A stretch of DNA of 35,906 bases from Legionellales bacterium (lineage in GTDB: Bacteria; Pseudomonadota; Gammaproteobacteria; Comchoanobacterales; Comchoanobacteraceae). Below are positions 6,586 to 9,755 of this stretch, piece by piece. The stretch is from NCBI GenBank assembly GCA_002722435.1, contig PBLX01000007.1:1-35906 (forward strand), given 5' to 3'. The position numbers and the translations under genes were made by a program. Position 1 is the first letter of the stretch. Every line of letters begins with the position of its first letter. The notes under the pieces were generated by a model. It searched no databases, was not told the origin of the DNA, and worked only from the letters and a program-made list of their open reading frames with translations.

Positions 6586-7722
6586 TTACAGATAACGTTC
6601 AATGTCAAACACATTTTTAAAGTTATTATTACGCCGCTTATCCATATCGTTTAACCTTTGAATAGTTTTACAGGACTGTTTATTATATTCTCCATCCAAA
6701 TGAATAAGCATGTTCACATAACTATTGTGTAACAAATAACGAGTATCTGCTCCTTGAATCCTTGCTTTTAGTCTTATTTCTAAATCCTTTAGTATCTTAT
6801 TGTTTAGGTTTCTCACATCATATTCTGTAGGTCCTGTAAGCGGCCCTATAACAAACGAGTTTTGCTTATATCCCATGGATCTAAAAAAGTCAACAGTGTC
6901 GAAAATAGTATATGGATTAAGTATAAACCAAAGCATGTTAAAACTAATTTTATGATCTAAACTTCTTATTGTGTCTAAATTTTTTAAAAATTTTTCCCAA
7001 CTAGCACCATACCTAATGTACTCAAATTCTTTATCCATAGTTTCCACACTGATAGTCCAGTGTACGTTTTTAAACTTACTTGCACGTTGAAATACAGGAC
7101 CTTGAATATTGCTTAAATTTGTGTTAATGCGTATAGTACAGTCTGGATTTATTTTATCCAATAGTTCACTGTTTTCTTTCATTAGCAGAGGTTCACCGCC
7201 CGCTAAGTAAACGTTCTTAAGATTATGTGCATTATCCAATACATATTGTTTTGTTTTTGCTAGTTGTGTTTCATTTACCCTTATAGTTTGTCCTAATTCT
7301 TTCTGCCAAGTACTGCTAAGTTCTGGGCTACAATATACACAAGCAAGGTTACATGTATTACGCCAACGAATATCAACAGTGCTTAGTGTAGTGTCCATTG
7401 TGTCATATGCTGTATATGGAACTCTAGCAAGTGCCTTTAAATAATAATATCTATCACTGCGTACATTTAATCCAGTATTTCCCTGTTCAAGTTTATAACA
7501 ATTACTACAATTACTATGAGGTTTGTTAAGAGCAAGTGTTTGTTTTATATTATTGTTTTCAGGACCATGTAGTATATCTTCAATATCTGTATTGTTAATA
7601 TGACCTGTATAGTCATTGCTAAGAACACAGGGCTTTACTTTCCCGTTGGGTTCCATATAAAAACCAGTCCAGGGCACTGGACAGAATGTTCCGTTTATTG
7701 CACTTTTAGGATCCATAGCCAA
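6586..7722 (-). CDS. Radical SAM protein with N-terminal SPASM/twitch-like Cys cluster
   Basis: 378 aa; 'NTCNLACVYCSPELSSTWQKELG' CxxxCxxC, 'YLAGGEPLL'; N-terminal 'FCPVPWTGFYMEPNGKVKPCV...NCSNCYKLEQ'. Confidence 0.88.
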   Translation of the reverse strand: MAMDPKSAINGTFCPVPWTGFYMEPNGKVKPCVLSNDYTGHINNTDIEDILHGPENNNIKQTLALNKPHSNCSNCYKLEQGNTGLNVRSDRYYYLKALARVPYTAYDTMDTTLSTVDIRWRNTCNLACVYCSPELSSTWQKELGQTIRVNETQLAKTKQYVLDNAHNLKNVYLAGGEPLLMKENSELLDKINPDCTIRINTNLSNIQGPVFQRASKFKNVHWTISVETMDKEFEYIRYGASWEKFLKNLDTIRSLDHKISFNMLWFILNPYTIFDTVDFFRSMGYKQNSFVIGPLTGPTEYDVRNLNNKILKDLEIRLKARIQGADTRYLLHNSYVNMLIHLDGEYNKQSCKTIQRLNDMDKRRNNNFKNVFDIERYL

Positions 7723-8248
7723 GACTGATCTCCTGCAATCTTAGATTACGTTTCTTACAGTATTCCCAGGTGTCCACAACTGCTTCACACCAATCTCTAA
7801 CAGGCGCACTGTCAACACCTGCAGTGTTGTGTGGTTGTGTTGCAACTATACCAGGGCGTATAAGCACTAGTCTACATTTACTGGATGTATTTTTTAGATT
7901 GTAATATGCTTGATCAAGTGTTTGTTTTTGTAGTTTGTACTCCTGCATTTCAAAATCTACAGTGTATTGTGCGCTCATAATACTGCCTATTAGCCAGATA
8001 AGTTTGCGTTGATCATGCCATTGATGCCATACTTTGTATAATAATTCTGTTTGTGCATAACCTGCTTGTGCGTTGTTAATAAACCAATCACACTCAACAA
8101 TAGGGCCAACTATCTTTTGCAAACTACGAATATTGTTTCCGTCACGCCTACTAAGACCTACAACTTCATGTCCTCGTTCAGACAGTATTTGTGCAAAACA
8201 CTGTCCTATACCTGCTGAATGTCCTGTGATTGCCACACGCATTACCAA
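7706..8248 (-). CDS. Short-chain dehydrogenase/reductase (SDR) family protein
   Basis: 180 aa; 'MRVAITGHSAGIGQCFAQILSERGHEVVGLSRRDG' Rossmann TGxxxGIG motif, 'DWFINNAQ' (NNA). Confidence 0.85.
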   Translation of the reverse strand: MVMRVAITGHSAGIGQCFAQILSERGHEVVGLSRRDGNNIRSLQKIVGPIVECDWFINNAQAGYAQTELLYKVWHQWHDQRKLIWLIGSIMSAQYTVDFEMQEYKLQKQTLDQAYYNLKNTSSKCRLVLIRPGIVATQPHNTAGVDSAPVRDWCEAVVDTWEYCKKRNLRLQEISLGYGS

Positions 8249-9207
8249 AATCTTTCTATACCTGGCCTGCAGGATTCTTCAAAATCTAAAAATATTTTAA
8301 GTTCCTGTGTATTATCACGATCAGTAGCAACTCCTGCTATATCTGTGTTTTCTGTTAGCCAATTTTTATATTTTACATTTAGCATATCAGGTTCTTTTAA
8401 AAATGCAAACTGATGACGTATTTCATTAGCAGTACAATATTCCTGTATTTGGGGCAAGTGTTTTACGTTAAGGGCACTAACTGTTGTCCATGTATCTAGT
8501 GTAAACATTTTATACTGTGTTGAAAGTTCTCTATAGTATAACATGTTACTCTCAAAATTATCCCATTTTACTGGATATCTTATATAATCGTGTACGTTGC
8601 CTATACCATCAAAACTTACTGTTACAATTACTGCTACGTTTTTTTCTAATAGGTTTTGTATTTGTTTGATCCTTACACATGCATTAGTATTAATTCGAAC
8701 AATACGAACACTATCTGGTAAATCGTTTAGAACTGTATTGTAATTTTTGCTAATACTAGGTTCGCCGCCATTAATATCTATTTCAACTACACGTTCCAGG
8801 GGTAATGTATTGTACAGTTCATAATTATCCTTTACTACTAATTTACCTTTTAAATTTCCTATGCGTGTACTTAAACTAGGTTTACATGTTACACATGCAC
8901 TATTGCAATAGTTGTCCAGTGTGCCTCCTAGTTGTATGTAACGTTTGTTAAACTTTCGCAGTATCCTATCACGTTCAATGCTGTTTAATCTTATACTAGT
9001 GCCATTGAGTTCTTCAGTTTGTTTACATCTAATGCATTCATTAGGCCATTGATCATTGCGCATTTGATATCTTAGGTATTCTAGCCAAGCACTGTTTTCC
9101 AGTTGTCTGAAACTATTATATTGGTTTGCATTTACCATATGGCCACAACATCCTATTGTTCCGTTGCTGTTTAATCTTGCGTAGTGGCCTAGTCTTGGGC
9201 AATGCAT
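8242..9207 (-). CDS. Radical SAM protein with N-terminal SPASM/twitch-like Cys cluster
   Basis: 321 aa; 'NYCNSACVTCKPSLS' CxxxCxxC, 'DINGGEPSISK' (GGEP); N-terminal 'HCPRLGHYARLNSNGTIGCCGH...ECIRCKQTEE'. Confidence 0.85.
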   Translation of the reverse strand: MHCPRLGHYARLNSNGTIGCCGHMVNANQYNSFRQLENSAWLEYLRYQMRNDQWPNECIRCKQTEELNGTSIRLNSIERDRILRKFNKRYIQLGGTLDNYCNSACVTCKPSLSTRIGNLKGKLVVKDNYELYNTLPLERVVEIDINGGEPSISKNYNTVLNDLPDSVRIVRINTNACVRIKQIQNLLEKNVAVIVTVSFDGIGNVHDYIRYPVKWDNFESNMLYYRELSTQYKMFTLDTWTTVSALNVKHLPQIQEYCTANEIRHQFAFLKEPDMLNVKYKNWLTENTDIAGVATDRDNTQELKIFLDFEESCRPGIERFW

Positions 9208-9755
9208 TTTTTATATAACACCTTTTGTGTATCTTTAATGTATTGATTTATTTCAGTTAGATTTGTTGTAGTGTTGACAAATTTTTTATAAATTATGTTA
9301 TCTAAATTTATCCAGTGTGTTGGTGCAACATAGTCATAGTATCTAGTGCTTGCATTTTTATGCACACTTATCTTAAGATCGTCTAAACTGAGAATGTGAA
9401 TTTGTCCAGTATAGTTTTTATAAAGATGACACAACCACATGTACTGTGGCATAAAATGTCTATCTACAAGTTCACCACGTTCTATTAAGGATACTAGTGT
9501 ATCTTCATCCAATTGTTGGTTAAGTTCTATGTATGTATTTACTCCACTGTTGAATCTTGTTTGTGCTTCACGCCAGAATACTGTTACTAGTTCAGTGCTT
9601 TTGTCAAAACTTCTGTTTACAACGTGCTTATTTACTGCTAATTGTTCTAGGCTACTGCTTGCATTCTTAAAAATAGGATACACAAAGCCATGCACAGATA
9701 ATTCTAAAACTGTACATAGCCTTGGGTATACTTGTTCAGGATTGTATTGAATCAT
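9189..9755 (-). CDS. Sulfotransferase-like protein
   Basis: 188 aa; 'VYPIFKNASSSLEQL' resembles the PAPS 5'-phosphosulfate loop (K-N-A-x-S-S) and 'VFWREAQTRFNSGVNTY' the R...S 3'-phosphate motif. Confidence 0.6.
   Translation of the reverse strand: MIQYNPEQVYPRLCTVLELSVHGFVYPIFKNASSSLEQLAVNKHVVNRSFDKSTELVTVFWREAQTRFNSGVNTYIELNQQLDEDTLVSLIERGELVDRHFMPQYMWLCHLYKNYTGQIHILSLDDLKISVHKNASTRYYDYVAPTHWINLDNIIYKKFVNTTTNLTEINQYIKDTQKVLYKKCIAQD

What the first reader, a model, noticed from the sequence alone, without database searches (positions are those of the whole stretch)
6586..9755. Four-gene overlapping cassette (sulfotransferase-like, radical SAM, SDR, radical SAM) between gp32 and uvsX
Sequence shows four minus-strand genes each overlapping the next (19, 7 and 17 nt), placed between two core replication/recombination genes. 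The combination of two radical SAM enzymes of the same architecture, an SDR redox enzyme and a PAPS-sulfotransferase-like protein looks like one biosynthetic or modification pathway. Inference: modification of a glycan, peptide or small metabolite (host surface or virion), delivered as a unit. I know of no described phage pathway with this gene set.
Basis: partly seen in the sequence, partly recalled or inferred. Interest (0 to 1): 0.82.

Follow-up and report, generated by a model that had tools for sequence, protein, structure and literature searches.

The report
Phage sulfotransferase–radical-SAM–reductase gene cassette
Uncultivated aquatic giant phages related to T4 carry, wedged between two DNA-replication genes, a compact four-gene set (a probable sulfotransferase, two radical-SAM enzymes and a small reductase) that has travelled as a unit through hundreds of viral sequences and probably builds or edits one chemical decoration, most likely on a sugar, though the product is unknown.

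Summary
Four overlapping minus-strand genes (ST-like, rSAM-B, SDR, rSAM-A) lie between gp32 and uvsX of a T4-like jumbo-phage contig. The gene set recurs in hundreds of uncultivated aquatic phage contigs (>=440 relatives of each of ST and SDR in IMG/VR). Of 84 distinct gp32–uvsX intervals collected with ST or SDR as bait, 75 hold all four genes, 69 in exactly this form. Active-site residues are invariant in 75 distinct loci. dN/dS is 0.08–0.13. Cassette proteins have diverged far more (37–55% mean identity) than flanking uvsX (81%). No cultivated phage searched carries the set, and close cultivated jumbo relatives have an empty gp32/uvsX site. The cassette consists of two translationally coupled pairs (ST+rSAM-B; SDR+rSAM-A) that can swap order or be lost. 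Optional extra members include a 2OG-oxygenase-like gene and, in one subclade, an APS-kinase-type gene. In some phages the set sits elsewhere, beside methyltransferase or sugar-nucleotide genes. The SDR assignment is firm; the sulfotransferase assignment is probable (motifs, fold match to viral sulfotransferases), not proven. A single pathway is likely and a glycan or nucleotide-sugar substrate is the best guess; neither is shown. Phages rich in radical SAM genes were reported in 2017; I found no description of this cassette.

The parts
9189..9755 (-). ST-like: small sulfotransferase-like protein (188 aa)
   Evidence: K30-N-A-S-S-S and R62xxxxRxxSG motifs plus H100xxPQ; K30, R62, R67, H100, Q104, W107, D152 invariant in 75/75 loci; AlphaFold pLDDT 90; best BFVD match 'Sulfotransferase family', E 7e-13, TM 0.80; Sulfotransfer_2 weakly matched in 9/68 members
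8242..9207 (-). rSAM-B: N-twitch-type radical SAM enzyme (321 aa), coupled to ST
   Evidence: NF033640 141.9 bits, below its cut-off of 170; CX3CX2C 75/75; auxiliary Cys C3, C21, C58, C61 75/75
7706..8248 (-). SDR: compact short-chain dehydrogenase/reductase (180 aa; conserved start at 8242)
   Evidence: Pfam Epimerase 21.5 bits; TGxxxGIG, N58N59A60, Y104xxxK108; PDB SDR hits E 2e-6
6586..7722 (-). rSAM-A: twitch-domain radical SAM enzyme (378 aa; start TTG 7722 or ATG 7716), coupled to SDR
   Evidence: NF033640 249.9 bits, cut-off 170; CX3CX2C 75/75; auxiliary Cys C14, C32, C72, C75 75/75
9758..9785 (-). GC-rich hairpin plus T-run just downstream of gp32, ending 3 nt before the ST start codon
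   Evidence: sequence; -22.4 kcal/mol and similar hairpins in relatives, also at empty sites
9792..10778 (-). gp32 ssDNA-binding protein (upstream flank)
   Evidence: phrog_1192 E 9.6e-65
5464..6552 (-). uvsX recombinase (downstream flank)
   Evidence: phrog_97 E 1.4e-69
3261..4802 (+). third NF033640 radical SAM gene near the cassette, opposite strand (not part of the four-gene unit)
   Evidence: 299 bits

Best explanation
The four genes are one accessory phage pathway built of two coupled enzyme pairs, inserted between gp32 and uvsX. Proposed working, all chemistry inferred: one twitch-type radical SAM enzyme abstracts a hydrogen from an unactivated carbon of a sugar (a nucleotide-sugar or surface saccharide), giving a keto or otherwise rearranged sugar. 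The compact SDR reduces it stereospecifically with NAD(P)H. The second radical SAM enzyme makes another edit, and the small sulfotransferase moves sulfate from PAPS to a hydroxyl. Optional 2OG-oxygenase-like and APS-kinase-type genes extend the route in some phages. The product would decorate the virion or the infected cell's envelope, for example in defence evasion or superinfection control.
For: Shown: fixed gene set in 75 of 84 distinct intervals. The same set occurs at an unrelated locus in L134/L135, and with rSAM-A absent in L160/L179. Divergence of cassette genes is correlated beyond that with uvsX. dN/dS 0.08-0.13. Active-site residues invariant and overlaps conserved. M1 (ST+rSAM-B) occurs alone in 7 intervals and M2 (SDR+rSAM-A) in 0 of 84, suggesting M2 depends on M1. 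Sugar context: L179 has UDPG_MGDP_dh and Epimerase genes near the set, and L134 an FkbM methyltransferase. Cassette-bearing records G012, G013 and G015 carry 13-16 NF033640 matches plus an APS-kinase-type gene, beside carbamoyltransferase-like and glycosyltransferase-like ORFs (by eye). The window's own assembly has an APS kinase, carbamoyltransferase, DegT aminotransferase, sugar epimerase, PIG-L deacetylase and an FNR-type reductase on contig C2.
Against: No substrate, product or activity is known. The only PDB sequence relative of both rSAMs is SkfB, a peptide-modifying enzyme. The APS-kinase-type gene also occurs in 5 of 12 uncultivated records chosen without the cassette as bait, so it is not cassette-specific. 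gp32/uvsX is a general insertion site, so neighbours there need not share a pathway. The sulfotransferase fold match in PDB is not significant. C2 and the window may not come from one phage.
Confidence: 0.45

Rival explanations
1. Protein or peptide modification: the rSAMs, with ST (e.g. tyrosine sulfation) and the optional 2OG-oxygenase-like protein, modify a virion or host protein rather than a sugar.
For: The sole PDB sequence relative of both rSAMs is the sactisynthase SkfB, E about 2e-6 to 4e-6; the optional neighbour has an HxD..H..R 2OG-oxygenase signature.
Against: Genes overlap and flanking gaps are 33-36 nt, so no precursor peptide is encoded inside the cassette; the SkfB match covers only the radical SAM core; at other loci the neighbours are sugar-nucleotide enzymes and methyltransferases.
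Confidence: 0.2
2. Small-molecule or lipid pathway: the cassette makes a sulfated diffusible metabolite or lipid (signal, redox cofactor, or compound against competitors).
For: Radical SAM, SDR and sulfotransferase enzymes are typical tailoring enzymes (general knowledge); nothing in the data excludes it.
Against: No carrier, ligase or backbone-building enzyme in the cassette; the phage-wide gene context is sugar-like.
Confidence: 0.17
3. Two independent modules (ST+rSAM-B and SDR+rSAM-A) that share an insertion hotspot but act in different pathways.
For: Modules swap order (L028, L173) and M1 occurs alone in 7 intervals; the hotspot also takes SGNH-like and glycosyltransferase-like genes (assigned by eye); in L016 M2 follows a different rSAM.
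Against: M2 was never seen without M1 in 84 complete intervals; both also occur together at a second locus; their divergences correlate after correction for uvsX (r 0.34-0.54 between modules).
Confidence: 0.18

Closest known systems
NCBIfam NF033640 twitch domain-containing radical SAM proteins
   Same: Both rSAMs have the N-terminal auxiliary-cluster domain and the radical SAM core; rSAM-A exceeds the curated cut-off.
   Different: rSAM-B is below the cut-off; the NCBIfam name assigns no reaction; the translational coupling to ST or SDR is a feature of this cassette.
Radical-SAM-rich T4-like environmental viral genomes (Nishimura et al. 2017, PMC5332604)
   Same: Marine T4-like viruses, one with 12 radical SAM genes, some with Fe-S scaffold genes; this assembly also has an Fe-S scaffold gene on phage contig C6.
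   Different: Sulfotransferase is not mentioned in that paper's main text and the four-gene cassette is not described; the closest cultivated relatives of this phage's terL and uvsX are jumbo phages.
Viral sulfotransferase family proteins (cyanophages, OM43 phages PMC10580990, giant viruses)
   Same: Same predicted fold class; their function in phages is stated to be unclear.
   Different: Here mostly 175-225 aa, no Pfam hit on the window protein, and nearly always followed by an overlapping radical SAM gene.
Classical SDR oxidoreductases (FabG type)
   Same: TGxxxGxG, NNA, YxxxK; PDB hits E 2e-6.
   Different: Only 172-192 aa in most members instead of about 250; only 4 weak relatives in a pattern-based scan of 85,488 species genomes, against 456 in IMG/VR.

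Membership tests
NF033640 twitch radical SAM | score above curated cut-off (170 bits), rSAM-A | tested here: met
   rSAM-A 249.9 bits
NF033640 twitch radical SAM | score above curated cut-off (170 bits), rSAM-B | tested here: not met
   141.9 bits; rSAM-B is called related, not a member
NF033640 twitch radical SAM | CX3CX2C and four-Cys N-terminal auxiliary site | tested here: met
   75 of 75 loci for both rSAMs
Classical SDR | TGxxxGxG, NNA and YxxxK | tested here: met
Classical SDR | catalytic Ser | tested here: inconclusive
   Ser at position 89 in the window, Thr in many homologues
Classical SDR | Pfam adh_short cut-off | tested here: not met
   19.2 against 26.6 bits; the related Epimerase model, 21.5 against 20.9, is met
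PAPS sulfotransferase | 5'-phosphosulfate loop with Lys and 3'-phosphate motif R..RxxSG | tested here: met
   K30, R62, R67 invariant; S70-G71 near invariant; assignment of the motifs by eye
PAPS sulfotransferase | Pfam sulfotransferase model match | tested here: not met
   the window protein has no Pfam hit; 9/68 relatives weakly match Sulfotransfer_2, best E 0.0015
PAPS sulfotransferase | sulfotransferase fold | tested here: inconclusive
   viral protein annotated sulfotransferase E 7e-13, TM 0.80; PDB leading hits are mostly sulfotransferases but E 0.16 or worse
PAPS sulfotransferase | PAPS-dependent activity | not testable with these tools
   needs biochemistry
RiPP (peptide maturase) cluster | precursor peptide gene in the cluster | tested here: not met
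   overlapping genes and 33-36 nt flanks leave no room; a distant precursor is not excluded

The most novel reading that the evidence does not exclude
A phage-specific 'radical editing plus sulfation' pathway of uncultivated aquatic jumbo phages: genomes with up to 16 twitch-type radical SAM genes, their own APS-kinase-type gene and sugar-modifying genes build an unusual sulfated saccharide, with the four-gene cassette as its conserved core.
Probability: 0.3. Interest if true: 0.82.

Novelty: new variant of a known kind. Interest (0 to 1): 0.62.

Why it matters
Radical SAM and sulfotransferase genes are repeatedly listed as phage auxiliary genes with unclear purpose (PMC5332604; PMC10580990 says the function of phage sulfotransferases remains unclear; PMC7150976 lists radical SAM genes as enriched in one marine phage community). 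A small, conserved, translationally coupled set with intact active sites turns that into a testable question: four proteins of under 400 aa each, a defined order, natural sub-versions (one pair only, swapped order) and natural empty sites as controls.

Tried and rejected
Cultivated-phage search for ST, SDR and rSAM-B: no matches in 50,697 records; rSAM-A gave only 27 Vibrio-phage matches, the best at 23-25% identity. Host origin: only 4 weak SDR relatives in the species-genome scan (pattern-based), and 17 genomes of the same genus and family as the window's assembly have no NF033640 gene, so the rSAMs are probably phage-borne. Antiviral viperin: 33.7 bits against a cut-off of 180, rejected. 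RiPP precursor inside the cassette: no room. APS-kinase-type gene as cassette-specific PAPS supply: rejected as specific, since it occurs in 6/20 cassette records and 5/12 uncultivated records taken with uvsX as bait. First ST model with 19 sequences gave no significant PDB hit; a deeper alignment improved the model (pLDDT 90) but still gave no significant PDB hit. Profile search of the ST and 2OG-like families against PDB sequences: nothing significant. Literature: searches combining radical SAM and sulfotransferase with phage terms found no paper.

Full report
OBSERVATION. The window is contig 7 of an assembly of 1.93 Mb in 67 contigs. It carries terL, a virion protein, gp32, the cassette, uvsX, a 77-aa ORF and uvsY in order on the minus strand. 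The four ORFs and overlaps are as reported; two overlaps depend on the start codon chosen.

WHAT THE PROTEINS ARE. rSAM-A scores 249.9 bits and rSAM-B 141.9 bits against NF033640 (cut-off 170). Both keep CX3CX2C and four N-terminal auxiliary cysteines in 75/75 distinct loci. The SDR is a compact version with TGxxxGIG, NNA and YxxxK. The ST-like protein has no Pfam hit of its own, but conserves K30, R62, R67, H100, Q104, W107 and D152 (75/75) and folds confidently (pLDDT 90). Its best viral fold match is annotated Sulfotransferase family (E 7e-13, TM 0.80), and many of the following, weaker matches carry the same name. In PDB the leading matches are mostly PAPS sulfotransferases, without significance. 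I put 'sulfotransferase' at about 0.85.

RECURRENCE. IMG/VR scans with the SDR and ST families found 456 and 440 relatives, the best 80 kept each. A gene map shows gp32-ST-rSAM-B-SDR-rSAM-A-uvsX over and over. Of 84 distinct complete intervals, 69 have exactly this order, 2 have the pairs swapped, 4 have the four genes plus an extra SDR or rSAM, 7 have only ST+rSAM-B, and 2 lack rSAM-A. These loci were found mainly with ST or SDR as bait, so they do not give a frequency. Cultivated jumbo relatives Phosso, Vibrio 2.275, Atu_ph07 and GAP32 are empty at the site. The cassette is therefore accessory.

A UNIT UNDER SELECTION. dN/dS medians are 0.08-0.13 for the cassette genes and 0.066 for uvsX. 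Mean pairwise identity is 37-55% against 81% for uvsX, and cassette distances correlate with each other (0.41-0.62) more than, on the whole, with uvsX (0.38-0.48). In L134 and L135 the set lies away from gp32/uvsX with order SDR-rSAM-ST-rSAM, next to a further rSAM and a 161-aa ORF. The L134 ORF belongs to a 2OG-oxygenase-like family with invariant HxD, a distal H and an R 12 residues later, which also occurs between rSAM-B and SDR in some gp32-site cassettes. No profile confirmed that fold, so this assignment rests on the motif. L160 and L179 have a similar set without the rSAM adjacent to SDR.

CONTEXT. Cassette-bearing records of 137-357 kb carry 6-16 NF033640 matches; the five cultivated jumbo relatives have none or one weak match. 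Three of those records (G012, G013, G015) also hold tandem rSAM genes upstream of an APS-kinase-type gene. Contig C2 of the window's assembly has a similar array followed by an APS kinase and a nucleotidyltransferase-like ORF, plus carbamoyltransferase, DegT aminotransferase, epimerase, PIG-L and a flavin reductase. Contigs C2, C6 and C9 carry phage genes: tail-fibre and virion-structural matches on C2, clamp loader on C6, DNA polymerase, primase and helicase on C9. In L087 the APS-kinase-type gene and a DUF2061 gene lie between rSAM-A and uvsX. That C2 and the window belong to one phage is inference. The genus and family relatives of the assembly have no NF033640, which points to phage origin of these genes; a host link is not shown.

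MECHANISM. Shown: gene set, coupling, conservation, active-site motifs, selection. Inferred: radical hydrogen abstraction from a sugar or other substrate, SDR reduction of the product, a second radical edit, sulfation. M2 was never seen alone in complete intervals, so it may act on the product of M1; this is weak evidence because L016, cut at its contig end, has M2 behind another rSAM.

COMPARISON WITH THE KNOWN. Radical-SAM-rich T4-like marine viruses are known (PMC5332604: one genome with 12 such genes). Phage sulfotransferases are known, with unclear function (PMC10580990). I found no paper describing this set, within an open-access library only.

Noticed in passing
window 9758-9785 (-): GC-rich hairpin with a T6 run directly after gp32, ending 3 nt before the ST start codon with no obvious ribosome site between; similar hairpins follow gp32 in many relatives, also where the site is empty. 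It may limit or couple cassette expression to gp32.
   Followed up: partly
window 3261-4802 (+): A third NF033640 radical SAM gene (513 aa, 299 bits) with an extra N-terminal region of about 120 aa, convergent to uvsY.
   Followed up: no
G000 contigs C2, C6, C9 (L064-L068): T4-like phage contigs in the same assembly with nine further NF033640 genes over the cut-off, six of them on C2 (five in tandem), and an Fe-S scaffold gene on C6.
   Followed up: partly
L022:7659-8720, L100:7751-8713, L190:4307-5251, L214:670-1668, L259:3598-4581: The gp32/uvsX gap in other phages holds SGNH-hydrolase-like and glycosyltransferase-like ORFs (judged by eye, no Pfam hit for those tested), suggesting a hotspot for surface-modification genes.
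   Followed up: partly
window 810-1583 (-): 257-aa ORF with a weak 2OG-Fe(II) oxygenase match (18.9 bits, below cut-off); relatives of it and its neighbours recur downstream of uvsY in related phages.
   Followed up: no
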